Source of the DNA: Desmodesmus armatus
Taxonomy: Eukaryota > Chlorophyta > Chlorophyceae > Sphaeropleales > Scenedesmaceae
Assembly: GCA_007449985.2 (NCBI GenBank)
Contig: VIIQ02000611.1
Coordinates: 142,266-206,265 of the forward strand
Direction: 5' to 3'
DNA length: 64,000 nucleotides
In this document: positions 1-64,000 of the stretch, piece after piece
Position numbering within the stretch: the first letter of the stretch is position 1
Layout: each line of letters begins with the position of its first letter
Program-made: the position numbers and the translations under genes
The notes under the pieces: generated by a model
What the model was told of the DNA's origin: nothing
What the model saw: the letters and a program-made list of their open reading frames with translations, nothing else
The model's database searches: none

Positions 1-3000
1 AGCCCGCTGTCGGACTGGAGTCAGTTCGATCAGGAGGAGCTGCAGCAGCAGATACAGGTGCGGGTGTACATACAGTTACATTACAATTACAGTTACAGTT
101 ACGATCCAGTTGGACCAGGAGGGGGTGCAGCAGCAGATACAGGTGCGAATGGACAGCAGCAGCATGCGCCAAGTGATCGCGCACACTGATGGTCACGGGG
201 GATGAGTTGAAACGGGCGGTGTTATGAGGGTATGGCTCATGTTGCTGCCGCTGAGCGGTTGGTTTGGATGCTGCCCTTCCCCGTCAAGCATGCAATGCAT
301 CGTCACATCGCTGGTCTATGTCTTGCTACGGAGGCAACATCATGGGTTGACATAGCGCTTGCAACCAGCCCAACATGGTGTCAAAACGGATTAGTATCAG
401 TGTGCGCCAACCTGCATGTATTGTGCTGCCCGTGTGTTGCAGGCCTGGGAGTGTGGTGTGGCCAGCGACACTGACCCGGAGCTATGGCATGTGTTGGCAT
501 AGTGCTTGCCTCTAGCCTGACACTGTTTCAGTGAGTGTGCTGCTGCCCACTTTTTGCAGGCCTGGGAGTGTGGTGTAGCCAGCGACACGGATCCAGAGTG
601 GCGGGCGCGTGCCGTCGAGCTGCGTGCCTATCACAGGCAGCATGGTGACACCAGTGTGGGGCACAGAGATGGCGATGACCCTGATCTAGCTAGGTAGGCG
701 GGGCCCTGCTACGACTTATCTATTGCTAGTACCACCAGGTTTCTACGGGTGTGGGGTTGCCAGCCATGCTCGCAGCCGAACGCGCCAGCCGTGGCTCATA
801 GACATAGAGATGGGGGTACTTTTGACCTAGCAAGGTGGGTGGGGCCCTGCTATGACTGCTTGGTGCTTGAACTTTTATGCTGCTAACGGCGTGGGTTGCC
901 AGCCTTGCTAGCAGCCGACCGCGCCAAGACCAAGGGATTTAGCAAGGTATGCCGGGCCATGCTACTGCTGCCCAAGACATCCTGAAGTTCTGCTGCTGGT
1001 CACATGATGCTGTTGCTGGTGGAATGGGGTACATGGCTGCATCACAGTCGTGATCGTGTACCCCATTCCACCAGCAACAGCATTAAATGACCAACAGAAC
1101 AACAGAATGTCTTTGGGCAGCAGTAGGAGGGGGGGCACCAGTGTGGGGCACAGAGACGGCGGCGGTCCAGACCTAGCTAGGTGCGCCGGGCCATGCTACT
1201 GCTGCCTAAGGACATTCTGATGTTCTGCCACTTATGTAATGCTGTTGCTGGTGGAATGGGGTACATGGCTGCGTCACAGCCGCGGCCGTGTACCCCATTC
1301 CACCAGTAACAGCATTACATGATCAGCAGAACAACAGAATGTCTTCAGGCAGCAGTAATTATTTTTCAGCCTGTGAGCTAAGGGAGGCGTCTGCGGCTTG
1401 CTACATTCAAAGTAAAACATATTGTCATTTGTTGGCCGGAGCCAGCTTTCAACCCAGCCTACTAGCCATGAAGCTGCATGATACTGCTGCCTAACAACAT
1501 TCTGATGTACTTCCAGTACGGTACTGCTGTTGCTGGTGGAATAGGGTACACGGCTGCGTCACAGCTGCGGATCCGAATGGCATTCCACCAGCAACAGTAT
1601 CACATGACCAGCAGAACATCAGAATGTATTGAGGCAGTAAGGGGGGGGGGCACCAGTGTGGTGGGGCACAGAGATTGCGACGATCCAGGTCTAACAAGGT
1701 ATGCCGGGCCATGCTACGGCTGCCTAACGACATTTTGAGCCCCCCCCAACCTCCCAGGGGGGTCACCGCGCAGCGCCGCGCAAGCTGCGCGGCTGCTGTC
1801 ATAGGTTCTGGCACTTGCATTTACATGCAGTCCATGAAAGTGGTGGCTGTCATGTTTGCATTGCTGCCCCCCCCCCCTCCTCCCTGGTGGGTCAGCCTGC
1901 AGCGCCGAGCTACGCCTGCGGCGCTGCTGTGCAACAATTCGGGCACTTGCTCTCACATCACTGCATGAATATTTTTATCGTTTTGCTGCATCGCTGGCCC
2001 CCCCAACCCTCCCAGATGGGTTACCGCGCAGCGCCGAGCGATGGCTGCTCGGCTGCTGTGCAGCGATTCGGGCACCTCTCACATCACTGCATGAATGTTT
2101 TTACTGCTTTGCTGCATTGCTGGCCCCTCCCCTCCCAGGTGGGTCAACGCGCAGCGCCGAGCGATGGCTGCTCGGCTGCTGCCATATGTTCTGCCATTTG
2201 CAATCACATGCAACCCATGAAACTGCCAAATAACTTTGCTGCATCCCCCCCCCTCCCATGTGGGTCACTGCGCAGCGCAGAGCAATGTCTGCGTGGCTGC
2301 TGTCACAGGCACTGGCAATTACCTGCAATTCTGCAAGTGGTATCTCATAACGCCGCATTGCGCCCCCCCCCCCCCTCCCCCGCCCCCCGCAGGTGGGTCA
2401 CCGCGCAGCGCCGCGCGATGTCTGCGGGGCTTCTGTCTGGTGACAAGCTGGATCTGCTGCAGGAGCTGGGCTTTGAATCGGACGAAGACGATGCAGAGTG
2501 GCTGCGCTGGTTCATGGACCTGGCCAGGTGGGGTTAGGTTTTAGGGTTTTAGGGTTTAGTGTTCTAGGTTTAATGTTTTAGGTGGTAGCCCTTTTGTCTC
2601 ATTGCAGCAGCAGCTATAAAAAGCTTCCTGCAGGGGCGATGCTTTCCATAACTGTGGTTTCAGAGACTGGATGCAGATGTTGCAGGAGCTTTAACAGCAT
2701 GTGAGAGTCTGCACTGGGAGCTGGGTTTACTTACGCCAGGCCCCTTACCCCAACTGTCACTGTCCCTGCATGCTGACAATGCGGCTTCTGCTGGGTTTGC
2801 AGGTACAAGGAGCAGCACGGCCATGCCAGTCCGCAGTCTTTGTCAGCAGGTATGTACAGACGGAAAGGTAGCAATGATGTGATGGCTGCAGCAGTAGTGA
2901 GTGCACGGGAGCCAGCACAGGGCAGCAATGCACGTTCTGCCATCTTGAAATGCACACACTGTGTGGCACACAGGGTCCTGCCGCCTTTTTTTAGGGTTTA

Positions 3001-28286: not shown

Positions 28287-28927
28287 ATGAAATGGAAACG
28301 TGAAAAGGGATCATCAACACCCCGTACAGGTGTTCTTTACCTATAGGAGCCTGCTGAAAACTCTCCGCGTAGCACGCTGCCGGCCGCTGTAACCCTCATT
28401 TACCTCGGTCACTTGCAGCACTTGGCAGCGCCAAGTCCATCATGCAGGCAGCTGTCCGCACCATTCTGTCTGGAATTGGGGAGGACCCAACTCGGGAGGG
28501 TCTCTTGGACACTCCTAAGGTAAACGAGGCTGGTAGCGCTCATGATCAGGCGAGATGGCAGCGACAGAATGCACTGGGCATCCCGCATGCATCCTGCAGT
28601 TGAGTTGGAATCCAAAGGGAGACTATCACACAACTCATTGCATGCCTGACATGCCCCATGTGCTGACTGCAGCGGGTGGCCAAGGCGACAGTAGCAATGC
28701 TGGCAGGCTATGGCAAAACAGGGGCAAGGTAAGGCATAAACGTAGTATGGTGTGCTTGGGTGCCTCTCCATCGACAGACTGTATTTATCCAGCTGCTGAG
28801 CATGTCACAGTTCAGGGAAAGCAGTCCAGTCAATGATGAGGCAACTCATTGGCCAGTTTCTGCATGTGCATCTGGCTTTCAAAGTCGTTGAAGTTCAACG
28901 ACACCCCCAAGCATGACCCTGTCTCTT

Positions 28928-28958
<31 letters not shown>

Positions 28959-31092
28959 TGTGCTGCTGTCGCCCTTTGCAACTTCTTCACTGCAGTACCA
29001 TTGGTGACGCCCTCTTCCACGAAGAGATCCTGTCAGGCAACGAGCCAGGCGTGGTGCTGGTGCGCGACATCGAGTTTGCTTCCCTTTCAGAGGACACCCT
29101 CCTGCCCTTCCACGGTCGCGCGCACATCGCCTACCTCCCCTCCAACGGCACTGTCCTGGGCCTGTCCAAGTTGGCAAGACTCACCAACACCTTCTCCAAA
29201 AGGGTACAGCAGCAGGAGACCCTGCAGAAAGACCTCCTGCACGCCCTGATGACCCACGTCAATGCATCAGGGGCTATGGTCGTGCTGGAGGCAAGCCACC
29301 TGACCTTTGCCCAGCCCAAGCAGCCTGTGCGCGTGACAGCAGCAGTGTCTGGCAGCTTTGCCCGGCCTTGTAGCAGCACCCCCTCTGAGGTTCTGGCCAT
29401 GCTGGGTATGAGTGCCCACACCAAGCTGGCCTATTTTGAGGAGACCCCTGCAGATATCGAGGTGGAGGTGTCAGATGTGCTCGACCAGGACACCTACAAG
29501 GCCAGCAAGGGGCCCAGCTGCTGTGCCAAGCCATGCTATGATGTGACGGCAGCAAGCGGCACCACACTCCACAGGTGCGTGTTCAAAACTATGATGATCT
29601 GTTGCAGAGCAGACACACGTGCACGTGGGGGATTGTGCAGTCTTGTATTGTGCTGTGTGGAGATCACTTGGCGTTGTCAGCGGCTCCTTGACGCACATGT
29701 GACAGTCTTCATCCCGCTTGTGCGCCATTGCATTCCCAGATACAGACAGCACTAACGGCAGTTCATCACATCAATACAATGCCACTGCCCCTGGCAGGGG
29801 CAACCCAGTGAATGCATGCCCACGCTTCTAACTGTTGCCAGTGAATGACGGCACCTGCGCACCTGCTGTGCTGCCTGTTTGTATTGCACAGCGGCATCAA
29901 CGGCAACAGCGAGGTCTTGGTTGGAGCAGCATACACCCTGCTTCAGGAGGCGGCCCGCTCAGTGGGCGTGGAGCTGCCCCCACCCGCCTACAGGCCTCAG
30001 CACAGCGCTACATCGCCAACCTCATCGAGGCGACCTCAGGCTTCCGCAACGTGCCCCCTGTTCTGCAGCTCTCGCGCTCTGCATCCCTCACCAGCAGCAG
30101 CAGCGGCAGCGGCGGCAGCATGGAGATGGTTGTTGAAGGCCTGACAGAGAAGAGCTACCACCTGCCTTTTGTGTCCCAGTGCGAGCATCATCTGCTGCCG
30201 TTTTACGGGAGCCTGCACGTCTGCTGCTTGCTGCCTGAGGATGCTGGAGGGGCTATGAGCGAGGACGAGGTGCACCAGATTGTCGAGACCTTCACCAAGC
30301 GCCTGCAGCTGCAGGAGCGCATCTGTCAGCAGGTAATCATGCAATCCGTGTACTGGGAGGGAACTTGGGTGGCTGGTTGAGGGGGCATATGCCACACAAC
30401 AGTGATAGAAACGGGATGTGGTGTGCTGTACACTTTCGCTGCCACGCCCGTTTGTTGGGCAGACGGGACATCAGCAGGGGGCAGTAGGGGGCTATGGCTG
30501 TGTGCTATCACAAGATATGCAGGCAGGGTCCAGTTTGCTTCTTTACTGCTTCATGCTCACAGCACGAAATGCTACCGTAATGCTGCATCATGGTTGTCGG
30601 ACAAATGGCTGCCTGACATCAGGCAGTGGACAGGCAACCGCCGAGCAGCCTCTGCTGTCAGTGTTGGCTATGGCTTGCCAGTACTGGGTTGTTATTCTCT
30701 CACACAGCTCAGACTCGTCCACTGCTACTGGCAGATTAGTAATAACTGTTGCCCCCCCAGCAGATTAGTAATCATTACTAGTACTTAGTAAGTTGCCGCC
30801 CTAGCAGATGACTAATCTCTGCTGCCGCACTGTGTGGTGTGTCCTCCAGGTTGCAGAGGCAGTTGAGGACGTCTCTCGAGCAGCAGGTGTGATGGTGGTT
30901 GGCCGTGCAGCCCACATGTGCATGGTTGCACGCGGTGTGGAGAACCACGGAGGCAGTACCGTTACTGCTGCAACACGTGGCGTGTTCAACAGCTCAGCTA
31001 CCATGAGGCTGAAGTGCCTGAGAGAGGCCCACCGTCGCCAGGAAGGCTCTGGAGACCAGCGCCCATGCAGCAACCATTGCTGCTCATGCTGA
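28287..31092 (+). CDS. GTP cyclohydrolase I, plant-type two-domain
   Basis: Exons: 28287-28329 (tentative), 28419-28519, 28673-28728, 28996-29574, 29892-30332 and 30850-31092 (TGA). If exon 1 is wrong, the ATG at 28431 is next. The enzyme converts GTP to dihydroneopterin triphosphate, the first step of folate synthesis. Two tandem GCHI halves are visible, as in plants. The N-half (GEDPTREGLLDTPKRVAKAT ... SLSEDTLLPFHGRAHIAYLP) lacks the zinc CEHH motif. The C-half keeps it (SQCEHHLLPFYGSLHV) and has AAHMCMVARGVENHGGST with the second zinc cysteine. Exon 5 changes frame between ...LLQEAARSVGVELPP and ASAQRYIANLIEATSGFR, near a CCCCC run (about 29972-29997). One missing base would fix it; a very short intron (about 32 bases ending CTACAG) would also restore frame. 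Confidence 0.9.
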
Positions 31093-51719: not shown

Positions 51720-53816
51720 ACATGCATGCTGTGTGACCGAGCACGACCCAGCTGGGTAGGCAGCGTGTGTTGGCAGAGAGTGCAGCTGCAGCTGTGTGTG
51801 TGTGTGTTGGGGTGGTGGTGGTGGTTGTAAAGTGCTGCTGCGTAGGCAGCGATCAATGTGCGGGTGTAGGGGTCTTCATGGTAGCAGTTATCAAGCCTTG
51901 GCCCTACACCCCCAGTAGACCACCTGCGGCTGGCAGTTGGGGTTTGTGGGTCAGCATGCTTGTGGAGTGTCACAGCAGCCGCAGTTGGCTGCAACATGTG
52001 GCATGGGCATTATGCAGCAGTGGGGTAACAGCAGTGGCAGCAGCTGCCTCTTGCTTTGGCAGTGTCTGTTGTGCTAGCTGGCCTTTCCCTTTGCCACTGG
52101 TATGTGTCACACATGCATGGTGCCGGCCAGTTGATGTGCAGCTGCAGCTGTGTTGACAGCAGTACGCGCCATGCAAGCAGCATGTTGTGCGCATGCTGCT
52201 GCGGTTTTGGCAGAGAAGCCGGTTGCGGGTTGTACGTTGCTGCGGCAGGCAATAGACATGCCGTGCCGGTTGTGTTTGGGTGTGTGTGTGGTGTCCTTGC
52301 ATCCGGACATGCCGTGTGCTGCAATGTCTGCAGTATCCTCATCACCTGTCTAGTAGGTTGGTAAGCATGCTGGCTCGGTTGCATGGGTCTTTTTGTTATT
52401 GTGTGGTCGGACATGTGGTGGCTGGCTTGCCTAGGTGTAGTACCTAGAACTGTCGCTCGCCAGGCGGGTGTGGGTGGAGACACTTGGGGACACACAAGTC
52501 TGCGGGGGAGGGTGACGGGAGTGGGCATGTGGCGCTGCTTGCCGTAGTGCGGTGCAGTGCAGCCCGCTGTAGCTGTGGCCTGAACAGGAGATGGACTGTA
52601 CATGCAGCGGTTGGAAGACTGTGGTTGGGACTCATCGGAGCAGATGAATTTGTGCAGTTGTGTGTCAGCAGTGGTGGTGATGCACTCGTGTAGGACGTGT
52701 GTTGGCAGGGGCTGCAGCATTTCAAGTTTTGCTTGGGCGGTGTGGTCGGAGATAAAGTTACATGTCATGTCAGCTCTGATTTTGTGGTCTCTGTAGGGCA
52801 CTGGGCCCGTAACTGATGTGGTCTGATGGCCTATCTGCATCTATCTGTATGCGCCGCATGACAGCCACACGCAGTGTTGCCGATTGAGCTGAAAGGCAGA
52901 GTGCAGGCGGAATTTGGCCCTCAAAACATGTCTATTTTGCCTCTAACCGTCAAGCCTTTGCCTCCTACTCAAACCTGTCGGCAACACTAGTGCTAGTACT
53001 GGCCACATGAAAGTATGGTGAAGGCACAACCAAATCAGCCAGATGTGGGTTGGAGTAGTCAACATGCCCAGTCTTGATGTCCAGGGTTGTGGGATGCCTG
53101 CGAGGCTGTGGCATCTGCAGTCAAGGCTGGCATGCTGTAGGACAGACTTGGGAGCAAACAAGCCACACCAGGCCGGACATGGAGGGAACTAGGCGCATTG
53201 AGATGAAATTGCGTAGAAATAGTTGCCGGGTGGTAGTAGGCCACAACAGAGGGAGAGGGCTACTTGCCAGGTTGGTCATCGCCAGGGTGTGGGTCACTGT
53301 CCGTTGTGTAAACCCTTCATACATTGAAAAAACAATTCCGCACAATCCACACTCCATACGGCTCGAACGACACAGTTTGCTTCGAAGTGCACCGTCGACC
53401 CACAGCAGGACAGAAGAAACGGGCGTCTCTTCCCCGCCTCCTCGTGGACAGCAGCAACAGCACTCTTGATCGCGTCACACTGAAACACTCGTATTTGATC
53501 CATTGCAGTCATGAGGGCGCTGGGCTTGCTGGTGGCCTGTTGCCTGATTCTGCAGGCAGCTGCGATCATCGAGTATTCACACATTGTCAAGTAAGCAAAA
53601 TGCTTAACTGATCCCCTGTTCATCTCTTCACTCCTGGACGGACTGCTCCCACATGCAGGTAGCACCAGTGTACTCCAACAGTACTGTTGACACGAGCAGC
53701 AGCTACACTGACCGATTCCTGCTGAGTGAGCAGTAATCCTCACAGGAAGGTTATGCTGTGTACAAGGCTATACAACACATGCCTTAGCAGAATCAGTGTG
53801 ATAGTTGACTAATCAT
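51720..53816. other. Intergenic, no gene recognised
   Basis: G3BP 3' region, then sequence without recognisable exons. A small element with inverted ends lies at 52873-52988. Confidence 0.4.
52873..52988. mobile_element. Candidate 116-bp MITE
   Basis: Perfect 11-base terminal inverted repeats AGTGTTGCCGA / TCGGCAACACT bound a non-coding 116-bp segment. No clear target-site duplication was found. Confidence 0.45.
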
Positions 53817-54330
53817 GTTGAGTCAACAAGGACTCTGGGTGATATCAGATCATGCCAGATACTGCTGCGTGGCAGTGCTATTATTGGTGGTTAAGTGCTT
53901 GGGAGTTGTATGCGATGAGTTTGGTGCTGCGATGCACAGGATCACTGGCGGGTTCAGGGTTTACCGCCTGCAGTGCCGATTCCTTTGTGCCGCTGTGGTG
54001 CTCTGTGCGTCGCACTCGGCTTTGACAGTGCTTGGTGTAAACTTCTGGCAGTGTTTCCCGAGTACTCGCTCATTTGAATCCCCAATTCAGAGCGCACAGG
54101 TGCAGCAACCAGCCCCAGCAGCGACCTGTGGTCGAACCGGGTGCCTGAACATCACTCATACATTCATACAGCGCATCAACACTTTGCAAAGGACTACAAG
54201 TGAGTATCTGCTACCCTCAGAGCAGCCAGCTGGCTGCGAAGCATCATTGCTGCAAGCTTTAGGCAGCAAACCACAAGCCGAGTGCCACATTTGCATTTAT
54301 ACACTTGTAGTAGCTCGCTAGTGCTCAACT
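53817..54330 (+). repeat. Candidate 5' LTR
   Basis: The segment begins TGTTGAGTCAA and has CTCAAC near 54324-54329, which could be the matching inverted end. No second LTR is available in the window for comparison and no primer-binding site was proven, so the borders are tentative. Confidence 0.25.
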
Positions 54331-54448
54331 GCGGGCGCTAGTGAAAGGGCCACTAGTGGGTGGTGGGCGCTGCCACGTGCCTGGCTACTGGGGGCATCGC
54401 GGCGCGTCTAGTAAGCATTAAGGTGTTTTAAATACTATTATAGTTTAC

Positions 54449-55252
54449 TTGCGTGGGTTTTTGGGAAGATCCACTGGTGCATTTCAGAGCTGGCCCATTT
54501 CCAGGCTGGCTTCTTCAGCGGGCAGGCGTGGACAGCAGCCATTTCCAACGTCTGGATCGCTTTCGGAGCAGTTCCAATCGGTGGTTCGGCAAGCTGTTGG
54601 TCAAGTGCGTGCGTCGGAGGAAGCAGGTGGCGCTGACAACCAGGAGAATTTGGGCTCTGGACTGATCAGCTACTCTGGTGACCAGGATCAGCACATTGGC
54701 GAGCAGCAGGAGGACAGCACTCTTGTTTTCACCAATCCACTCTTCGAGCAGGCCACCAGCAGCATGGCTGGCCTTGGCAGTCTGTCTTTTGGGGGCAAGC
54801 TGGACTCTGGAAGCAGCAGCAGCAACTCCATGATACCAAAGCTATGGTCTGGACAGCCTGGAGTGGATTCCTTCGGAGAATGGCAGCGTGCTGTCAGGTG
54901 GAACCAGGGCCAAAAGCGCAATGCAGCCATGGACAAGAAGCTGGACAAGCACTCTGGTGAAGAGATTGCCGAGATTGCCCAGTTGACTGTCATACGCTCC
55001 GATGGTGCCAAAGCAGTGGAGCAGGCTGGGCAGGTCTTGGAGAAACATGTCAGGGCTGCTGACCAGGGCTGGTATCCTCCACAGGAGCTGGAAGCAGCTG
55101 CTCTGGAGTTTGTGCGCAAGCGTCACCCCAACAGTGACTTGGCAGAGCAGACGCTGGCAGCATTGATCAAGGAGAGGTATGAGAAAGTACACATTGCTGC
55201 GTTGCCAAGGGCTGGGCACTTGAGGACAGTGTTGGGCTGGAGCAGGCGCTGA
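54449..55252 (+). CDS. Retrotransposon gag, N-terminal part
   Basis: This is an open stretch of 267 codons starting at a TTG; no ATG occurs before about 54763, so the true start is unclear and may need an upstream leader. Content is Ser/Gly/Gln-rich at first, then helical and charged (RWNQGQKRNAAMDKKLDKHS, LIKERYEKVHIAA), as in capsid-type gag. A one-base shift near 55200 would join it to the next open frame (...VAKGWALEDSVGLEQAL). Identity rests on position before the zinc knuckles and protease. Confidence 0.6.
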   Translation: MRGFLGRSTGAFQSWPISRLASSAGRRGQQPFPTSGSLSEQFQSVVRQAVGQVRASEEAGGADNQENLGSGLISYSGDQDQHIGEQQEDSTLVFTNPLFEQATSSMAGLGSLSFGGKLDSGSSSSNSMIPKLWSGQPGVDSFGEWQRAVRWNQGQKRNAAMDKKLDKHSGEEIAEIAQLTVIRSDGAKAVEQAGQVLEKHVRAADQGWYPPQELEAAALEFVRKRHPNSDLAEQTLAALIKERYEKVHIAALPRAGHLRTVLGWSRR

Positions 55253-55272
55253 CAGCAAACTCTTCGCCACTT

Positions 55273-58200
55273 GTGCAGCAGCAGGACTCAACTGGCAACA
55301 GCAGCGGCGGTGGCGGCGGCGGCCTGCCTCCTGCAACAACAGATCCTATGCAAACTGCTATGCTGGGCTTCTTCAAAACGCTCAGTGACAGGCTGGTCAA
55401 GAGCACGCAGGACAATAAATACTTCATGACTGTGGGGATGAGGAAGTGGAGCCCTCACAGCTGTGTCATGGAGCTTTTCTGGTGTATGATGGACGCAGCA
55501 TACGGAGTGGCCAGCAGCAAGGAGCAGGCTGAGTTCTACCAGCTGCAGAGTGAGGGTTCCCAGGGCAGCAGGCAGGTGCAGGAGTTTGCGCAGCGCGTGG
55601 CAGTGCTGTATGAGAGTGTCAAGACACTGGGCATTGTGCCAGCAGGTGCAGACATTACCACCTTCTGCAAGGGTCTCAGCAATGCCAGCAGCAGGCAGTT
55701 TGCACGGCAGCGCAAGGAGGAGTACTATGCGTCCAACAGAACTCACATTGCGCTGGAATCACTAGCTGACCAAGTTCAGCAATTCGAGAAGAACCTCCAT
55801 CAGGATGGCGTGCTGGCGCAGCAGGCATTGATTATGGTGGGCAACAGCAGTGTGGGAGCTGGAAGCAGCAAGAACGCCCGGCGCGCAGGTGAGGAGAGTA
55901 CACTGGTGCAGACGCTGCTGCGTTCTCGCCGGGAGAATGAGGCTACACAGCAGTACCTCAGCAAGATGGGTGCGCGTGAGAAGCTGCTCATCACCAAGGG
56001 CTTTGACATGGCGGAGATCGACCCCAAGGACCCCTCTGCTGTCTGCCTGGACTGTCCTGCAACAAAGCGGCCACACCTGAACCAAGACTGCAAGGGCAGG
56101 CGCATGGCGGGGCTGGCTATGGCAGCAGCGCAGGAGGGCAGCACTGCCAACAAAAGCAGCAGCAGCATTGGCAGCAGCGCTGGAACCTTGGACGTCAACA
56201 CGCTGGCAATCATGGTGCAGCAGGCAGTGGCTATGGCAGCAGCAGGAGCAGGCGCAGCACCGGCAGGACTGGGGCAAGGGCTGCCAAGGGCTTACAACAA
56301 GCCAGAAAACAGCAGGGGTAACAGGGGCTATGGTGGCAGCAACGGCAGGCAGCAGCAGTACGCAGGGCCACCTGGCTTGGGTGTTGGGTCAGCAGTTATG
56401 GCGTGTGTCATCTGTGGCTTTGCCAAGGGCCACTCAGATGGTGTCTGCTATATGGACAAGCCAGAGCTGGCTCCAGAGAAGTGGGAGGGCCCCACGGAGC
56501 GTGCACCTGAGCAGGGGATGGTGCACTACATCTCCCGCTGCATGCAGCAGAAGCTGAAGCCACGGCTGGGGCGTTGCAAGGAGCTGCTGCGGAGGATGAT
56601 GCAGAGCAACAAGCTGCCGCCAGCTATGCAGCAGTTCATTGGACAGCACACACAGCAGCAGCGGTACATGAACATGGCTTATGGCGCAGCAGCAGAGCCG
56701 TATGGGGCTTATGCAGCTTACATGACAGGCATGGGGTCTGCTGGTTCCAGCTACTGGCCCATGGGCGGCTCGGCAATGCAGCAGCCAATGGCAGGGCTGC
56801 CACCCTCTCACACACCGCTGGCTATCACTGGTGCAGTTGGCGACAGCACCGGTGAACAAGCAGCAATGATGGTGCTGCCGGATGCAGGCGGGTATGTGAG
56901 TGAGGAGCAGCAGCAGGAAACAATGCACTTTGGGCCCTCTTTCTGTTATGTGGGCTTAGCAGACTGGCAGCAGGATCTGGCAGGTGGGCTCTTTGACTCA
57001 ACGGGACATGAGTATGCACTGGTTGGGACACGTGCACAGGCAGGAGCTGGTGCAGTGCAGCAGGGCAGGGTTGTCAGGCAGCCTGTGCCCAAGGGCTTCC
57101 TACCACCCTCAGCTCTTCCTACAGACCTGAATGCCATGCGTTCCATGCCACGCATCACCAATGCACTGGTTGCTGGCTTAGGAGAGCTGGACGGCACCAG
57201 CAGGGGGCTACTGCACACGCTGCTTGACATTCAGCGGTTTGTGGCGAGCAGGGTATCTGCTTTTGGAGACCTTCTGGGTGTGCAGGAGGCTGGTGGAGCA
57301 CATGGTAGCAGCAGTGCACAGCAGGGAGGGCAGCAGGCTCTGCAGGAGGCAACAGCAGCAAAGGGTACTGCCAGCATGGTGTCCAGCAGCAGTTCTGGGC
57401 GCTGTGGCCCTGTTGCAGCAGCGGCGGCAAGCAGCCGCAGCCTCCTGGAGTCAGTCATGCTGCAGTATGGCTTCAAGCCAGTGGCAATCGATTACACCCT
57501 ACGCCAGTCAATGCCTGTGACGCTGGACTTCCTGGTGGGCACGAACAAACAGGAAGGATTGACACTAACAACCCCGGATGGGCGTGATGTGCTAGTAGAT
57601 ATGGCGTTCCAGGACTCAGGTGCCACACTGCTGCTGTTCACTGAGGTGGCTTGTGGCGAGTGGGGTACTTACATCTTCAGAACAAATCAGGTGCCGTCTG
57701 TCAAGGGCATTGATGGGCTGCCGTCCAAGAAGATTATCGGCAGGACAGGACCGCTGGTTCTCACACTTGCCAAGGGACACCCACTGGCAGCAGTCCTGCC
57801 CGTTCCGTGTGCTTGGGTGCTGGAGGGAGACGCGGGTGGCATGTTTAAGGTGTGCTTGGACAAGAAGACACTGCTGCCGGTGTTTGGGTATGTGGATCCA
57901 GCCCTCAACATGCTATGCTTCCGTCCCAAGGCAGCACAGGGCAGGCTTGACATTATACACGGCATTCCCGTGCGTGGCTATGTCAAGAACGGCAACAGCA
58001 GCATCAGCAGTGGCAACATGGCGGCTGCCACCATCTGGGAGGAGGACAGCAGGGACACAGAGGAGCTTGAGGGCTCAGCAGCAGCAGTGCCGGGCATCAA
58101 CTACAGGCCGTTTACTGCAGAGGAGAACACTCTAGCCAATGCAGAGCTCGAACGGCTGCTTCAGGCAGGAGTTATCACAGAACTGGATGCTGGGCCATTT

Positions 58201-59190
58201 GAAGTGAACGATCGCTGGTACTTGGACCACCTGGGCCTGAATGGTGGTGTGCCACAGCAGGTGCAAGAGGACTTGGACAGCAGCAGCTCCACTGGGTCAA
58301 CCGCTATGCCTGAGCTGTGCACAGGCAGTGACAGCGACAGTCTCCCAGAGCTGGTGGATGCTTACAACCCAGTGACTGCTGACATCGAGTATTTCAGCCC
58401 TCATGGCAGTGCAGCAGATGCTTGGCTGCAACAACAAACTGGGGGTGAGCACAACAAGCGCAGGCGCCGGCGTGGGCGCGGCCGCAAGGGCAGGGGGCGG
58501 CAGCAGCAGCAGCAACAGCAGGAGCAGGAGCAGGAGCAGGCAGAAGCACAGCAGCCACTGGAGGAGCCAGCAGGCAAGCTATGGGGCTTTGACTGGTCCA
58601 AGGCTGCTGGTCAGCTGCTGCCGGGCATCAGCTGGATCACGACACACATGGTGCTGCTGCTGCTAGGCATGTTCCACTTCTTTGTGGACTTGCCGCTGAG
58701 GAAGTACCCCTCAAAGATCATGCGTGGATTGGTCAGCATGGCGGGAGCAGCAGTGCGCCCAGGCAACCCCATGCGCGCAAGGGAGTATAATGTGGCAGAA
58801 CCTGTGCCCACTAACAACCTTGGCGACACACGGCGCGCACGCAAGCGTCGGCACAACAGAGGGCCCAGGCCAGGCCCTGGCTTGCAACCGACGGCAGAGC
58901 AGGACGCACCGCAAACAAAGGTCTCTGTGGTCGCCACAGTGCGTCACTCTGGCAAGGTCATCACTGCGCGCACAGTGCTGATGTGCCTACTCTGTTTCTT
59001 CTCAGTGCTGTGCTCCACAGCAGCAATGCAGGTTACCAACAGCATTGGGGCAGCAGCCACTGGATCAGCACTGCAAGCTGGCTACTTTCCCCTGCCACAT
59101 GGCGTCCCACCACACCTCAACATGCACTTGCTGCAGCAGGAGCTTGCCAACCTGCATTGCAGTAGGTTTCGCTGCTACAGCAGAGCATGA
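55273..59190 (+). CDS. Retrotransposon gag-protease polyprotein with hydrophobic segments
   Basis: This is an unbroken frame of about 1305 codons. Early part: helical capsid-like region. Zinc knuckles: CLDCPATKRPHLNQDC near 56044 and CVICGFAKGHSDGVC near 56404 (CX2CX5-6HX4C). Aspartic protease: VDMAFQDSGATLLLF near 57597-57641, with the DSG active site. Acidic spacer, then a basic stretch (RRRRGRGRKGRGRQQQ) near 58460. Two hydrophobic segments follow: MVLLLLGMFHFFVDLPL near 58648 and VLMCLLCFFSVLCSTAAM near 58975. Hydrophobic segments between protease and RT are not usual for gypsy elements. The frame ends just inside the start of the RT frame, overlapping it by 146 bases. Confidence 0.75.
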   Translation: MQQQDSTGNSSGGGGGGLPPATTDPMQTAMLGFFKTLSDRLVKSTQDNKYFMTVGMRKWSPHSCVMELFWCMMDAAYGVASSKEQAEFYQLQSEGSQGSRQVQEFAQRVAVLYESVKTLGIVPAGADITTFCKGLSNASSRQFARQRKEEYYASNRTHIALESLADQVQQFEKNLHQDGVLAQQALIMVGNSSVGAGSSKNARRAGEESTLVQTLLRSRRENEATQQYLSKMGAREKLLITKGFDMAEIDPKDPSAVCLDCPATKRPHLNQDCKGRRMAGLAMAAAQEGSTANKSSSSIGSSAGTLDVNTLAIMVQQAVAMAAAGAGAAPAGLGQGLPRAYNKPENSRGNRGYGGSNGRQQQYAGPPGLGVGSAVMACVICGFAKGHSDGVCYMDKPELAPEKWEGPTERAPEQGMVHYISRCMQQKLKPRLGRCKELLRRMMQSNKLPPAMQQFIGQHTQQQRYMNMAYGAAAEPYGAYAAYMTGMGSAGSSYWPMGGSAMQQPMAGLPPSHTPLAITGAVGDSTGEQAAMMVLPDAGGYVSEEQQQETMHFGPSFCYVGLADWQQDLAGGLFDSTGHEYALVGTRAQAGAGAVQQGRVVRQPVPKGFLPPSALPTDLNAMRSMPRITNALVAGLGELDGTSRGLLHTLLDIQRFVASRVSAFGDLLGVQEAGGAHGSSSAQQGGQQALQEATAAKGTASMVSSSSSGRCGPVAAAAASSRSLLESVMLQYGFKPVAIDYTLRQSMPVTLDFLVGTNKQEGLTLTTPDGRDVLVDMAFQDSGATLLLFTEVACGEWGTYIFRTNQVPSVKGIDGLPSKKIIGRTGPLVLTLAKGHPLAAVLPVPCAWVLEGDAGGMFKVCLDKKTLLPVFGYVDPALNMLCFRPKAAQGRLDIIHGIPVRGYVKNGNSSISSGNMAAATIWEEDSRDTEELEGSAAAVPGINYRPFTAEENTLANAELERLLQAGVITELDAGPFEVNDRWYLDHLGLNGGVPQQVQEDLDSSSSTGSTAMPELCTGSDSDSLPELVDAYNPVTADIEYFSPHGSAADAWLQQQTGGEHNKRRRRRGRGRKGRGRQQQQQQQEQEQEQAEAQQPLEEPAGKLWGFDWSKAAGQLLPGISWITTHMVLLLLGMFHFFVDLPLRKYPSKIMRGLVSMAGAAVRPGNPMRAREYNVAEPVPTNNLGDTRRARKRRHNRGPRPGPGLQPTAEQDAPQTKVSVVATVRHSGKVITARTVLMCLLCFFSVLCSTAAMQVTNSIGAAATGSALQAGYFPLPHGVPPHLNMHLLQQELANLHCSRFRCYSRA

Positions 59191-61132
59191 TTCTGGCCAA
59201 GTGAAGTGGTACCAGGCCGACCCAGCAGCTCTGGACCAACTTGGGCCCGATGGCGCAACAGAAGATGTGCATGACGCCAGATGGACAGTGCACGATGAGG
59301 GCAAATGGATCTTGGGCAACCACCCAGATGCATCGCCTGCACAAATGGACCAGCTGGTGCAGATGCTGTTGGAGGAGCGAGGGGCATTTGCTTACAGTCT
59401 GCAGGACTTGCCTGGCTACACAGGGGACGTAGCTGACTTCAAACTGATCGATCCCTCCAAACGTATGTGGAGCGCACCCAGACGCTACACAGAAGAGGAG
59501 GTGAAGTTTGCCAAGGAGAAGGTGCAGGAGATGCTGGATGCGGGCATCGTAAAAGAAATTCCAACGACCTGTCCGCATGCTTCAGCTATCACGTTGCCTA
59601 TGAAGCGAGCACCCGACGGTAGCTGGACCGACAAGCGGTTCTGCATCGACCTGCGCAACGTCAACGGCAACACAGTGGTGGACAGTTACGGCCTGCCACT
59701 ACCGGAAGAACTGTTTAGGCGAATTAGGGGGCACAAATTCTTGGTCAAGGCGGACTTTAGAGCGGGCTTTTGGCAGCTCAACCTGAGCGAAGAGGCGCAG
59801 CAGCACGTGGCCTTCCACGCACCCGACAGTGGCAAGCGACTGACCTACACGCGGCTGTGTTTTGGTCACGTGAACGCCACGGCAATTTTCCAGCGGGTTA
59901 TGGAGAAGGAGCTGGCAGCAGCTGGTTTGTCTCACTGTGCGGCGCCGTTCGTCGATGACGTTATCATGTGGTGCGACACCTGGGAGGACATGGTGACCAA
60001 CTTCAGAACACTTCTACAGCATCTCAAGACAGTGGGCTTGCGCCTGCACCCTGCCAAGACAATCGTGGGTGCAGACTGCTTGCCTTACCTGGGTCACCTG
60101 GTATCAGCCAAGGAGTGCAAGCCGGAGCCAGCCAAGATTGCAGGCATCAAGGCACTGCAGCCACCCACCAGCCTCAAGCGCCTGCAGGCCCACCTTGGCC
60201 TGTTTAATTACTACAGGTGCTATGTGCCCAACTTTGCCATCATTGCCAGGCCGCTTTACAAGCTTATGGAGAAGGGTGCGCAGTACATCTGGAGTGATGA
60301 CTGTAACCAGGCGTATGAGGGGCTTCGAACGGCGCTGTGCAAGAAGGGTTTGGGGCTCAGGCAGCCTGTGGATGGGCGCAGTTTTCATCTGTATGTCGAC
60401 TGGAGCAACACGGGCATTGCAGCTGTGCTGAATCAGGAGGCGGAGGATGGGACGGAGTACATGGTGGCCTGTGCCAGCAGGTCCCTCAATGCAGCTGAGC
60501 AGAACTATCCCGCCTGGAAAGGCGAGATGATGGCAGCAGTGTGGGGCGTCAAAATGTACAGGCCGTACTTGCACTCCAGGGAGTTCTATCTCCACAGCGA
60601 CCACCGGGCGCTGTTATGGCTGCTGACACAGAAGACACCAGTGGGGCAGCAGATGCGTTGGATTCTGGCACTTCAGGAGTACCGCTTCTCACTGGTGCAC
60701 AGGGCAGGCAAGTCAAACCCAGCTGATGTGCCTAGCAGGGAAGCCAGTAGCTGTGTGGCAGACACCACTGGAGCCAGGTTGGACACGGAGCTGCATGACT
60801 GGGTGCCCACTGTGCTTCTGCCAGACTGCAAAACAACGGACCCACTGGTCTACACACATGACAGTCTGGCACTGGAGCTGGGCATTGGCAGCAAATCAAC
60901 AGCAGCAGCTGGAGTGGCAGCAATGGCTTATGAGGAAACACCTGGTGACTGCCCAATCCTTCACAGCCCAGCAGCAGCGCTGCGGCAGAACCAGCAGACA
61001 GCTACAGTCATGAACAGCTGGAGCACGAGGCGTTGTGTTGTCTACTGTGCAGCAACGAGTCTGCAGTGGACACATTCGCCCCAACCGCCGACTCATTGCT
61101 GGGGGGGAGACAGCAGGACAACTTTTTGCTGA
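59045..61132 (+). CDS. Reverse transcriptase and RNase H
   Basis: The RT palm and fingers read PRRYTEEEVKFAKEKVQEML, KRFCIDLRNVNGNTVVDSYG, LPEELFRRIRGHKFLVKADF, RLCFGHVNATAIFQRVME and the catalytic APFVDDVIMWCD (F-V-D-D in place of the common Y-x-D-D). The connection is HLGLFNYYRCYVPNFAIIAR. The RNase H domain is of the gypsy type: FHLYVDWSNTGIAAVLNQ, ACASRSLNAAEQNYPAWKGE, REFYLHSDHRALLWLL and VHRAGKSNPADVPSRE. The frame runs on about 400 bases after RNase H and is then overlapped by the methyltransferase frame, one base forward. Upstream joining to the protease frame also needs a one-base change. Confidence 0.9.
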   Translation: MGQQPLDQHCKLATFPCHMASHHTSTCTCCSRSLPTCIAVGFAATAEHDSGQVKWYQADPAALDQLGPDGATEDVHDARWTVHDEGKWILGNHPDASPAQMDQLVQMLLEERGAFAYSLQDLPGYTGDVADFKLIDPSKRMWSAPRRYTEEEVKFAKEKVQEMLDAGIVKEIPTTCPHASAITLPMKRAPDGSWTDKRFCIDLRNVNGNTVVDSYGLPLPEELFRRIRGHKFLVKADFRAGFWQLNLSEEAQQHVAFHAPDSGKRLTYTRLCFGHVNATAIFQRVMEKELAAAGLSHCAAPFVDDVIMWCDTWEDMVTNFRTLLQHLKTVGLRLHPAKTIVGADCLPYLGHLVSAKECKPEPAKIAGIKALQPPTSLKRLQAHLGLFNYYRCYVPNFAIIARPLYKLMEKGAQYIWSDDCNQAYEGLRTALCKKGLGLRQPVDGRSFHLYVDWSNTGIAAVLNQEAEDGTEYMVACASRSLNAAEQNYPAWKGEMMAAVWGVKMYRPYLHSREFYLHSDHRALLWLLTQKTPVGQQMRWILALQEYRFSLVHRAGKSNPADVPSREASSCVADTTGARLDTELHDWVPTVLLPDCKTTDPLVYTHDSLALELGIGSKSTAAAGVAAMAYEETPGDCPILHSPAAALRQNQQTATVMNSWSTRRCVVYCAATSLQWTHSPQPPTHCWGGDSRTTFC

Positions 61133-63134
61133 CGATGGCTGCTGCGTGGACACACAACACCCAGCAGTAGCTTGGCGGCAGCATGACCTACAGCAGGCAG
61201 CATCGGCGTGGGTCACATTGGCAGGGCTACAACAGCCCCAACCGGACAGCTTCCAGCCAGGAGTGTACACAGGTGCATTGGACCCCTGGGGCGTAAGGGA
61301 GACACAAGGGCTGTGCACGGCTACTGTGGCAGACACGTTCTTCCCGGCAGCGCTGCAGCAGGGCATCGTGCTTTATGAGCCGTTTGGTGGCATCTGCGCA
61401 GGGCTGGAGATGGTGCTCAGGAGTGGCATCACAGTCAAACAGTACCTGTACAGCGACATCAACCCCATGGCACAGCGGGCGGCGTTACACAGGATCAGGG
61501 TGCTGCAAAGCATGTATCCCAAGCAGCTACCGGAGGATGCTTTGGCTGGCAGTTTCAGCATTCTTCCCATGGATGTGAGGCACATCACCACACAGCAGCT
61601 CAGCAAGGCTGTCAGCGAGGCACCAGTCAAGCAATGGCTGGTAGTAGGAGGCTGGCCCTGTCAAGACTTCTCTGCAGCAGGCAAGTCACAGGGGCTTCGG
61701 GGTGATCGGGCTCAACTGCTGTTTGACCTGGTCAGGGTAGTGGGAGCGTTGCAACAGCTACTCCCACACCAGCCCCCAGCCTACCTGGTGGAGAATGTGC
61801 TCTTGCAGCAGCACAGGCTGAGCAGCATCAGTCAGCATGACTTCAATAAAATCAAGGCGTGCCTAGGGTTACCTGTGGTGCTGGACGCAGCACAGTTTGG
61901 CAGCCTTGCACATCGGGCGCGCAACTTCTGGTCCAACCTGGTTGGGCCCAGTCAACTGCGAGCAGCTTTGGCATTTGTCAAGAGGCCACCCGCACGCAGC
62001 GTACAGCTTGCCTTGGGACCTGGCAGGACCGCGCAACCTGTCAACCGACCAGACGCTGCTCCTCTCTACCCCTGCAACGCACCAGGGCAGCCTCGCGCAG
62101 CCTGGCCTACCTTGGTCAGCAGCGCACGCTCCTACGCCTTCAGGCCTGGCCAGCCTGGCAGTGTTTTGGACACAACGGTGCCTGCTGTAGTCAAGTGGGG
62201 CGAGCCAACAGCAGAGGAGAGAGAGGTAGCTCTGGGCTATCTTCCAGGCAGCACAGCAGCAGCAGGCCTCACACAAGCGCAGCGGTGTGCGTTGCTCGGT
62301 GAAAGCATGGATGCCAACACTTTGCAGGTGCTCATGGCCATCGCCAAGGCTTGGTTCCTGCGGGGCCTGCCTACCTCTACTGACTTGGCGACACGTGCAT
62401 TCAGCGCACACGAAGGGGAACTGGCGCAGGAGTGGCCTGGCAGAGAGGCAACTGCAACCCCACATGGCTATCAGCAGCAGCTAGCCATGACAGCTGGCTA
62501 CCAGGAGAACACTACGGCTACGAGCCAAGGTGACATCTGGGCCGACGATAAGACCCTGGAGTACATCAGAACAGGGCAACTCCCACAAGACCTGGCAGCC
62601 AGCCAGGCAGCACGTATCAAGCGACGTGCACGCTCATACTACTTCAAGGACCAGCAGCTGATCAGGAGGATGCCAGATGGCACCGACAGGCTGGTACCTC
62701 CACCACAGGCGCGTGCTGGTCTCATACGGCAGCAACACGAGATGTGTGGGCACTTTGGCAGGCGGCGCACCTCAGCCATGCTACTCAGTAAGCACTGGTG
62801 GTATGGGTTACTGGCGGACGTTGCAACAGTGCTGTCACGCTGCGAGCACTGCAGCAGGGTGCATGCCAGCTTCACCGCCAAGCCGGAGGAGCTGCGCCCC
62901 ATTCCAATCAGCAGCATGGGTTTCAGGTGGCACGTGGACACAGCTGGGCCACTACCCAAGAGTGCAAAGGGCAACAAGTATGTGCTGGTGTGTGTTGAGG
63001 CATTCAGCAAGTACCTGGTGGTGGTGCCGATGGAAAACGACAAGGCGGAGACCACTGCATACCACTTCTTGCGGTGTATTGGCACACTTTGCAGCACCAG
63101 GGCAGGTGGTGACAGACTCAGGGACAGAGTTTGA
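61035..63134 (+). CDS. C5 cytosine DNA methyltransferase fused to integrase N-terminal half
   Basis: This is one open frame of about 699 codons. Methyltransferase (about 61360-62400): motif I VLYEPFGGICAGLEMVL, motif IV WLVVGGWPCQDFSAAGK with the catalytic cysteine, a GD(R)...LLFDLVRV block, motif VI YLVENVLLQ, motif VIII-like QFGSLAHRARNFWSNL, and a C-terminal LLGESMDANTLQVLMAI resembling motif X. MDVRHIT, VVGGxPC and AHRARxFWxNL are closest in pattern to DNMT3/DRM-type enzymes. Then the integrase zinc domain (HEMCGHF ... CEHCSRV) and the first catalytic acid (FRWHVDTAGPLP). The domain lies between RNase H and integrase and shares the frame with integrase, so it is part of the element. The frame breaks at about 63090 inside the integrase core. 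Confidence 0.85.
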   Translation: MLSTVQQRVCSGHIRPNRRLIAGGETAGQLFADDGCCVDTQHPAVAWRQHDLQQAASAWVTLAGLQQPQPDSFQPGVYTGALDPWGVRETQGLCTATVADTFFPAALQQGIVLYEPFGGICAGLEMVLRSGITVKQYLYSDINPMAQRAALHRIRVLQSMYPKQLPEDALAGSFSILPMDVRHITTQQLSKAVSEAPVKQWLVVGGWPCQDFSAAGKSQGLRGDRAQLLFDLVRVVGALQQLLPHQPPAYLVENVLLQQHRLSSISQHDFNKIKACLGLPVVLDAAQFGSLAHRARNFWSNLVGPSQLRAALAFVKRPPARSVQLALGPGRTAQPVNRPDAAPLYPCNAPGQPRAAWPTLVSSARSYAFRPGQPGSVLDTTVPAVVKWGEPTAEEREVALGYLPGSTAAAGLTQAQRCALLGESMDANTLQVLMAIAKAWFLRGLPTSTDLATRAFSAHEGELAQEWPGREATATPHGYQQQLAMTAGYQENTTATSQGDIWADDKTLEYIRTGQLPQDLAASQAARIKRRARSYYFKDQQLIRRMPDGTDRLVPPPQARAGLIRQQHEMCGHFGRRRTSAMLLSKHWWYGLLADVATVLSRCEHCSRVHASFTAKPEELRPIPISSMGFRWHVDTAGPLPKSAKGNKYVLVCVEAFSKYLVVVPMENDKAETTAYHFLRCIGTLCSTRAGGDRLRDRV

Positions 63135-64000
63135 GGGCGAGTTTGCCAAGCTCCTGGAGGATGCGCTCATCGATCATGCCATCATCAGTGCAGACCACCC
63201 TCAGGCCAATGGTCAGGCAGAGAAGGCTGTGCACATCGTCAAGCGGGCGCTTACCAAAATGGCAGTGGCAAGGCACAGTGTCAAGCAGTGGGGAGGACTT
63301 GGCATGGCTGGCACTGGGCTACCGCTGCTCTCCACAGGCCAGCACAGGCCACAGCCCGTACGAACTCATGTATGCACGTCCACCGGTCATTCCACCTGCA
63401 GTGAAGGAGCTTGTCAGCACACCCCTGGACATCAGTGCTGAGGCGGCTGTCAAGGACCTACTGCAGCGTAAGGAGCGGCTAAAGCAGCAGGTGCCCATTG
63501 CGCTGGAGAACTGGCGATTGCACAGCACAGGGATCAGCGCCGTTACCTGCAGCTGCGTGCGCCTGACTACAAGCCACGCGTTCACAGGTTTTATGGTGGG
63601 TGACTACGTCTACACTCAGCAGCTTAACCGGGCAAGCAAGCTACAGCCCAGGGCCAAACCCCTCATTCTGCGAGTTCTGGAGGTGCGGGACTCTGGGGTA
63701 CTGCACCTGCAGGGGCGCTGTGGCCGGACCATTGAGGTGCACATGTCTCACTGTGCACCCTGCCACTTGCCTGATATCGACGGCGGCATCGACCCACTGC
63801 TGGTGGACAACACAGATGATGTGGTCTGTGAGGTATGCAGCACCAGCGACAACGGGGCCGAGCTCATGCTGTGTGACGTGTGCAACAGCGGATACCATAC
63901 CTACTGCTTGCAACCACCACTCAGCAGTGTGCCTGACGGTGTGTGGCTGTGCCCGGAGTGTGTGGACGCTGGCTACACAGAACAGGATGCTGCTGGCAGG
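63085..64000 (+). CDS. Integrase core (second half), C-terminal domain and PHD finger (partial)
   Basis: Read across several frame changes. The integrase core continues with VVTDSGTEFEGEFAKLL (second Asp) and ADHPQANGQAEKAVHIVKRA (Glu), then AWLALGYRCSPQASTGHSPY and ELMYARPPVIPPAVKELV. The C-terminal domain is FMVGDYVYTQQLNRASKLQP, LQGRCGRTIEVHMSHCAPC. From about 63826 a C4HC3 PHD finger follows: CEVC, LMLCDVC, GYHTYC and LCPEC, to the window edge. Breaks at 63293 (GGGG), 63512 and 63590 (TTTT) each need one base. The three acidic catalytic residues are present. A PHD finger at this place fits a chromatin-targeting role for integration (inference). Confidence 0.75.

What the first reader, a model, noticed from the sequence alone, without database searches (positions are those of the whole stretch)
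61035..63134. LTR retrotransposon carrying its own cytosine DNA methyltransferase
A full-looking C5 methyltransferase domain with intact PCQ and ENV motifs sits between RNase H and integrase, in the same reading frame as the integrase. Methyltransferases captured by retrotransposons are, to my recollection, reported for dinoflagellates and a charophyte alga. A chlorophyte gypsy element with the domain at this position may be a separate capture. The element could mark its own new copies, or hide them, by adding methylation.
Basis: partly seen in the sequence, partly recalled or inferred. Interest (0 to 1): 0.9.

Follow-up and report, generated by a model that had tools for sequence, protein, structure and literature searches.

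The report
Green-alga retrotransposon with DNA methyltransferase
A young, many-copy jumping gene in an apparently green-algal genome carries a well-preserved DNA-methylating enzyme and a chromatin-reading finger inside its own polyprotein; it belongs to a large algal family related in design to one already reported from another green alga.

Summary
Confirmed and extended. The window copy begins at 53688 and is cut by the contig end at 64000. Intact copies elsewhere are 13.9-kb Gypsy-type elements with one 1937-aa Pol: RT, RNase H, C5-methyltransferase, integrase, PHD finger and a tail. 36 places hold the methyltransferase at 99-100% identity. Of 68 related RT places (43% or more identical) 66 have it downstream; of 22 more distant ones 1 has. 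Its model (pLDDT 94) matches DNMT3 best. Catalytic Cys and motif VI Glu are invariant in 196 of 196 domains compared, but the Pro before the Cys is Glu in 87. RT and methyltransferase trees largely agree, pointing to one old acquisition in the sampled clade. Repeats are A-ORFs-B-GC-A-B with 4-bp target duplications, as expected if a two-LTR circle is opened at an inner palindrome. Klebsormidium KnitGypsy-Dnmt3 (2018) is also Gypsy, Dnmt3-in-Pol and A-B-A-B, so 'separate capture' is not shown. Most likely role: methylating the element's own cDNA or insertion site (inferred; no methylation data). New variant of a known kind.

The parts
53688..54275 (+). A repeat (588 bp), 5' end of the element; starts TGACACG
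   Evidence: 588-bp repeat found at both ends of the C13 copy, and matched here; element start fixed by 4-bp target duplications in 4 of 4 copies checked. No second copy lies within the window, as the element is cut
54422..59190 (+). Gag-like ORF1 with retropepsin-like DSGA at 57613-57624; two overlapping frames here, one 1589-aa open frame in the C13 copy
   Evidence: Gag and protease are read from position and motif, no credible Pfam hit
59648..60097 (+). Reverse transcriptase (FVDD at 59948)
   Evidence: PF00078 E 1.2e-16
60290..60682 (+). RNase H
   Evidence: PF17917 E 8.9e-31, PF17919 E 5.2e-24
61344..62357 (+). DNMT3-type C5-methyltransferase domain; motifs I, IV (PCQ), VI (ENV), VIII and X recognisable
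62697..62864 (+). Integrase H2C2 zinc-binding domain
   Evidence: PF17921 E 3.8e-11
62925..63441 (+). Integrase catalytic core (rve); split over frames in this copy, continuous in intact copies
   Evidence: (partial rve, below Pfam's cut-off); the same Pol order gives rve E 3e-13 in L031
63827..63961 (+). PHD finger; nearest folds include readers of unmodified histone H3
   Evidence: PF00628 E 9.5e-13
53688..64000 (+). Whole element as present in the window: 10.3 of 13.9 kb, cut by the contig end

Best explanation
This is a young, recently multiplied Gypsy-type retrotransposon of an old lineage, known here mostly from chlorophytes, that took up a DNMT3-type methyltransferase once and has kept it as a working part of Pol. 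SHOWN: domain order, copy number, target duplications, B-GC-A junctions, conservation, purifying selection on the domain, DNMT3-like fold, agreement of RT and DNMT trees. INFERRED: the domain travels with RT and integrase in the particle and methylates the element's own double-stranded cDNA (probably a two-LTR circular form that integrase opens at the palindrome GTCA|GC|TGAC) and/or the DNA around the insertion, while the PHD finger on the integrase side docks on histone H3 unmodified at K4. New copies would then arrive already methylated and quiet, sparing host and element until later reactivation.
For: Pol order and single frame. 66 of 68 related RT places carry the domain, 1 of 22 distant ones. 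Cys 196/196, motif VI Glu 196/196, motif VIII Arg 193 and 194 of 196. dN/dS for DNMT 0.096 and 0.18 against RT 0.04 and 0.137, in the two least diverged of six pairs. 49 of 92 splits shared between RT and DNMT trees, label shuffles mean 0.2, max 2. Fold DNMT3; DNMT3A is the best PDB sequence match, E 1.3e-12. Repeat structure repeated in a 61%-identical family with other repeat sequences, again with GC between B and A; 31 junctions in the genome, 0 in the reversed-pattern control. Precedent: isolated SymbioDIRS-Dnmt3 domains methylate CG in yeast (PMC5890265).
Against: No methylation, expression or activity data for this genome. CpG ratio of the element (0.469) is like the flanking host DNA (0.485), and 32 private substitutions in 11 copies show no clear CpG excess (C-to-T or G-to-A at 2 of 1078 CpG positions, 5 of 6956 others). 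In the published yeast assay the KnitGypsy domain gave no methylation, which the authors call inconclusive. In almost half of the domains the Pro before the catalytic Cys is Glu (87 of 196), which may change activity. DNMT dN/dS is somewhat higher than that of RT and integrase. Circle opening is deduced from end structure in two families only.
Confidence: 0.5

Rival explanations
1. The methyltransferase acts on the host rather than on the element: it loads methylation on chromatin around the insertion (or competes with host DNMTs), with the PHD finger and the barrel after it as the targeting part.
For: PHD finger and a beta-rich domain follow integrase in the same Pol as DNMT; PHD neighbours include readers of unmodified H3 (BAZ2A, UHRF1, ATXR5), the mark that the DNMT3 ADD domain reads (recalled).
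Against: In the Pol frames read here DNMT stands next to RNase H and before integrase, so the cDNA is the nearest substrate; nothing here measures host methylation.
Confidence: 0.25
2. The domain is kept for something other than methyl transfer, such as binding cDNA or the target; the Pro-to-Glu form in many relatives is then an enzyme turned binder.
For: Motif IV Pro is Glu in 87, Ser in 9 and Ala in 2 of 196; on the RT tree Glu at the ingroup root needs 12 changes against 14 for Pro, so the odd form may be the older one.
Against: Catalytic Cys and motif VI Glu do not vary (196 of 196); the window family itself is PCQ/ENV.
Confidence: 0.15
3. Domain captured from a bacterium, phage or giant virus rather than from a DNMT3.
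For: Motif IV (GWPCQD.S.AG..GL.G) reads like bacterial and phage enzymes (loci partly picked by that motif); a PHROG DNA-methyltransferase profile also matches, E 3.5e-15. A paper reports no DNMT3 in green-algal transcriptomes of MMETSP (PMC9998398, passages), so a host source is not evident.
Against: Structure and sequence are nearest DNMT3; element domains group with DNMT3A and a DIRS-borne DNMT, away from 48 phage and bacterial rows, 100/100 (with a single DNMT3 row); none of the 60 phage or bacterial ORFs listed shows the DNMT3-like FW.N pattern of motif VIII.
Confidence: 0.1
4. Assembly or annotation artefact: gene fragment next to a transposon.
For: The window copy is cut by a contig end and frame-broken.
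Against: 36 near-identical places, intact ORFs, other families, and database relatives with the same domains.
Confidence: 0.01

Closest known systems
KnitGypsy-Dnmt3 of Klebsormidium nitens (de Mendoza et al. 2018, PMC5890265; parts 1-3 of 7 of the text and passages read)
   Same: Gypsy domains, Dnmt3-type domain in the Pol ORF, repeats arranged as in DIRS elements (A-coding-B-A-B), purifying selection on the domain
   Different: Sequence relation not testable here; the paper's main text does not mention a PHD finger (0 occurrences) and I could not see its figure; here motif IV is PCQ or ECQ, many chlorophyte-type relatives exist, and 4-bp target duplications and the B-GC-A palindrome are documented
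SymbioDIRS-Dnmt3 and SymbioLINE-Dnmt of dinoflagellates (same paper)
   Same: Retrotransposon-borne cytosine methyltransferase, Dnmt3 type in the DIRS case; SymbioDIRS shares A-B-A-B repeats
   Different: Tyrosine recombinase or LINE machinery instead of DDE integrase; a different class of retroelement
Chromoviruses (chromodomain Gypsy elements; recalled)
   Same: Chromatin reader attached to the integrase C-terminus
   Different: Reader here is a PHD finger, and a writer (DNMT3 type) sits before the integrase
Vertebrate DNMT3A/3B
   Different: PCN in DNMT3 (alignment) against PCQ/ECQ; 21-28% identity in the structural matches

Membership tests
Ty3/Gypsy LTR retrotransposon | Gag, protease, RT, RNase H, then DDE integrase in Pol | tested here: met
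   (RVT_1, RT_RNaseH, H2C2, rve in order; Gag by position and protease by a DSGA motif only)
Ty3/Gypsy LTR retrotransposon | Short target duplication, TG...CA ends | tested here: met
   4-bp duplications CTGT, CCAA, TCCT, GGCG in 4 of 4 copies checked and TTGT in the one C78 copy; ends TGAC...GTCA and TGTC...GTCA
Ty3/Gypsy LTR retrotransposon | Identical complete LTRs at both ends | tested here: not met
   A...B-GC-A-B: the 5' end lacks B, the 3' end has A plus B
DIRS/PAT-like (tyrosine recombinase) retrotransposon | Split direct repeats A-ORF-B-A-B | tested here: met
DIRS/PAT-like (tyrosine recombinase) retrotransposon | Tyrosine recombinase, no target duplication | tested here: not met
   rve integrase and 4-bp duplications; no recombinase domain in the Pfam scans made
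DNMT3 methyltransferases | DNMT3 catalytic fold and nearest sequence kin | tested here: met
   grouping with DNMT3A (one row only, no DNMT1/2/5/6)
DNMT3 methyltransferases | PCN motif IV | tested here: not met
   PCQ here; over 196 domains PC 98, EC 87, SC 9, AC 2
DNMT3 methyltransferases | De novo cytosine methylation | not testable with these tools
   Needs expression or methylome data
KnitGypsy-Dnmt3 lineage | Gypsy Pol with Dnmt3 domain and A-B-A-B repeats | tested here: met
   against text of PMC5890265
KnitGypsy-Dnmt3 lineage | RT and DNMT sequences cluster with the K. nitens element | not tested

The most novel reading that the evidence does not exclude
A single old green-lineage clade of Gypsy elements, perhaps including KnitGypsy, has turned itself into a chromatin writer-reader vehicle: a DNMT3 enzyme and an H3K4me0-type PHD in Pol, a DIRS-like replication route in which integrase opens a two-LTR circle at a palindrome (the circle being the methylated form), and in about half of its branches a Glu beside the catalytic Cys that defines a functional C5-methyltransferase type not known before.
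Probability: 0.25. Interest if true: 0.85.

Novelty: new variant of a known kind. Interest (0 to 1): 0.62.

Why it matters
It suggests that retrotransposon-borne DNA methyltransferases are not a curiosity of dinoflagellates and one charophyte but a widespread, long-kept feature of a Gypsy clade of chlorophytes, with a burst of near-identical copies in this genome. That would make the open question of why a transposon should methylate DNA testable in a green alga, links it to an unusual circle-like integration route, and offers a natural series of PC and EC enzymes for testing the role of the motif IV proline.

Tried and rejected
Chance or artefact: rejected by copies. Single degenerate capture: rejected by 66 of 68 co-occurrence and by selection. 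'Copies at 80-90% identity' (C252, C287, C558) looked diverged, but their RT is 100% identical; I read the lower figure as small frame-shifting indels, not divergence (not checked base by base). CpG depletion as a sign of self-methylation: 7 DNMT-bearing stretches 0.41-0.61 against 4 Gypsy stretches without a listed DNMT 0.555-0.62; suggestive only, host flank 0.485, few and short stretches, so not used. Substitution spectrum: too few changes. K. nitens sequence: none recognisable in three protein searches, so the separate-capture question stays open. Host name: rRNA search not answered. Fold of the barrel after the PHD: the fold searches covered residues 9-66 and 206-330 of that model, so its name 'Tudor-like' rests on a recalled motif and strands only. 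Paper searches for algal Gypsy elements with a cytosine methyltransferase (one search listed 20 of 25 papers, 17 of 18) showed no listing that describes them; most listed papers were seen as listings only. PMC6338049 (part 2 of its section 1 read) says in one sentence that DAM- and DCM-encoding Ty3/Gypsy and DIRS elements occur in green algae among others, without details. PMC9998398, PMC8226300 and PMC3627910 were seen as passages. Most subscription papers are not in that library.
Full report
OBSERVATION. The ORF at 61014-63134 encodes a C5 cytosine methyltransferase domain followed in frame by the integrase zinc domain, downstream of RT and RNase H. The window is G000:C581:142266-206265 of a 115.8-Mb genome and its right end is the contig end. 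The element starts at 53688 with a 588-bp repeat and is cut at 64000, 10.3 of 13.9 kb being present. In this copy Pol is spread over three frames; in intact copies one 1937-aa frame carries everything. Aligned copies carry 0 to 17 gap columns each against C13, the window copy 9, so the breaks here may be sequencing errors or real decay; I cannot tell.

ANATOMY OF AN INTACT COPY (C13). Length 13,945 bp. ORF1 is Gag-like with a retropepsin-type DSGA motif; Pol lies in the +1 frame with a 206-nt overlap; a third ORF of 427 aa follows. Pol order is RT, RNase H, methyltransferase, integrase (H2C2, rve), PHD finger, a beta-rich domain that I call Tudor-like from its strands and a recalled YEDGD-type motif, and a C-terminal alpha/beta domain. 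Other families of the genome, at 61, 57, 57, 51, 46 and 45% identity in the methyltransferase, show the same order as far as the fetched stretches and open frames reach.

REPEATS AND INTEGRATION. The ends are not plain LTRs. Reading 5' to 3': A (588 bp), ORFs, a G-rich polypurine-like tract, B (49 bp), the dinucleotide GC, A (588 bp, identical), B (identical). The element begins TGAC and ends GTCA and is flanked by 4-bp duplications in 4 of 4 copies checked. A copy of a family 61% identical in the methyltransferase has the same plan with other repeat sequences: A 527, B 191, again GC between B and A, a GTGGGGGGGG tract before B, duplication TTGT. The inner junction of the window family occurs 31 times in the genome and its reversed control 0 times. 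If a conventional LTR is taken as B-GC-A (right after the polypurine tract, ending with A), the integrated form A-ORFs-B-GC-A-B is what a two-LTR circle gives when opened at an inner B|GC|A junction, whose core GTCAGCTGAC is a palindrome in the window family. That is inference from structure; DDE integrase and target duplications show that this is not a tyrosine-recombinase element, the kind with which such repeats are usually linked.

COPIES AND CO-OCCURRENCE. One search lists 97 rows for the domain (a lower bound): 36 at 99-100% over 357 or more residues, 16 of them in a frame of exactly 1937 aa. A search with RT and RNase H (98 rows, also a lower bound) was crossed with it: of 68 RT places at 43% identity or more, 66 have a methyltransferase match within 3 kb downstream (the two without are short fragments); of 22 at lower identity 1 has (90 and 80 rows entered). 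So the domain marks the whole clade, while more distant Gypsy elements of the same genome lack it. Eleven copies compared over 13.9 kb show 32 private substitutions: a very recent burst.

SELECTION AND HISTORY. NG86 dN/dS in the two closest of six family pairs: C180/C589b RT 0.04, DNMT 0.096, integrase 0.048, PHD-Tudor 0.114; C786/C190 RT 0.137, DNMT 0.18, integrase 0.11 (synonymous sites are near saturation, YN00 mostly failed, the other four pairs are saturated). The DNMT and RT trees share 49 of 92 splits (200 label shuffles: mean 0.2, max 2); 39 of 47 well-supported RT splits recur in the DNMT tree and 2 conflict with a well-supported DNMT split. One acquisition with common descent is the simplest reading. 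Database relatives were gathered mostly through the domain itself, so they cannot tell how many kin lack it; the own-genome RT search can.

RELATIVES. All 113 proteins listed carry an RT, RNase H or integrase domain in the precomputed column. Names include pol of Scenedesmus sp. PABB004 (P0041); one search adds Dunaliella salina (P0181) and a Chrzof1 record (P0125, read as Chromochloris zofingiensis from memory). One row is named after a bacterial MAG (P0084), probably misbinned. Two eukprot rows (P0003, P0035) bear accessions that look like transcriptome records (recalled), hinting at transcription.

HOW IT LIKELY WORKS. The DNMT is made as part of Pol next to RNase H and integrase, so it should sit in the particle and meet the cDNA first. 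I think it most likely that it methylates the new double-stranded copy, linear or circular, and possibly the insertion site, with the PHD guiding integration into silent chromatin. Copies would enter quiet. Shown: anatomy, conservation, fold, repeat structure. Not shown: activity, substrate, timing, effect.

AGAINST WHAT IS KNOWN. de Mendoza et al. 2018 (PMC5890265) reported Dnmt3 in dinoflagellate DIRS elements, an orphan DNMT in dinoflagellate LINEs, and Dnmt3 in the Pol ORF of a Klebsormidium Gypsy element whose repeats follow the DIRS plan; SymbioDIRS-Dnmt3 domains methylated CG in yeast, the KnitGypsy one did not in an assay called inconclusive. The terms chlorophyt-, green alga and PHD do not occur in its main text. 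A 2025 survey (PMC12344493, section 5 and passages read) mentions retrotransposon DNMT3 for streptophytes and dinoflagellates and names a separate ChloroDNMT group in chlorophytes and charophytes. A 2023 survey found no DNMT3 in green-algal MMETSP transcriptomes (PMC9998398, passages), so the donor of the domain is not obvious. The kind is known; the chlorophyte-type clade, the PHD and methyltransferase-fold tail, the PC-to-EC series and the B-GC-A junction I did not find described (searches; mostly listings seen). One opinion paper says in a sentence that DAM- and DCM-encoding retrotransposons occur in green algae (PMC6338049).

VERDICT. Observation confirmed; interpretation partly supported; new variant of a known kind; interest 0.62.

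Noticed in passing
L034 (rc), L032; P0071, P0074, P0075, P0076, P0079, P0085, P0110: 2A-like ribosome-skipping peptides (GDVEPNPGP type), once or twice, in 9 of 265 proteins; in L032 and L034 upstream of RT. Suggests Gag/Pol separation by 2A instead of a frameshift in that branch.
   Followed up: partly
P0068, P0092 (also P0057 below cut-off; precomputed in P0086, P0214): G-patch domain in the linker between methyltransferase and integrase of some relatives.
   Followed up: no
P0057, P0063, P0074, P0087, P0092, P0094, P0231, L034 (rc) C-termini: Possible second methyltransferase: motif-I-like sequence after the PHD part; PHROG 799 DNA methyltransferase E 1.4e-4 for P0057; weak methyltransferase fold in C13.
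   Followed up: partly
G000: C560, C20, C36, C41, C142, C583, C590, C602 and others: Many copies lie within a few kb of contig starts, C560 starting one base before the A repeat: the assembly probably breaks at this 13.9-kb repeat, so true copy number is likely higher.
   Followed up: no
P0113: A DIRS-like protein (RT, no integrase domain listed) with an N-terminal methyltransferase related to DNMT3, motif IV PCT, in an unnamed contig.
   Followed up: partly
G000: C11:85136, C146:127529 and 130527, C769:22832: PF00145 matches away from the element family, probably exons of host methyltransferase genes.
   Followed up: no
window 28892-29755: Host-like ORF with GTP cyclohydrolase I domain, E 5.7e-28.
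   Followed up: no
window 1743-2303: Tandem array, 129-bp period, 4.5 copies.
   Followed up: no
window 1-53687: Host DNA has CpG ratio 0.485 with TpG 1.68, as expected of a genome with CG methylation; not tested.
   Followed up: no
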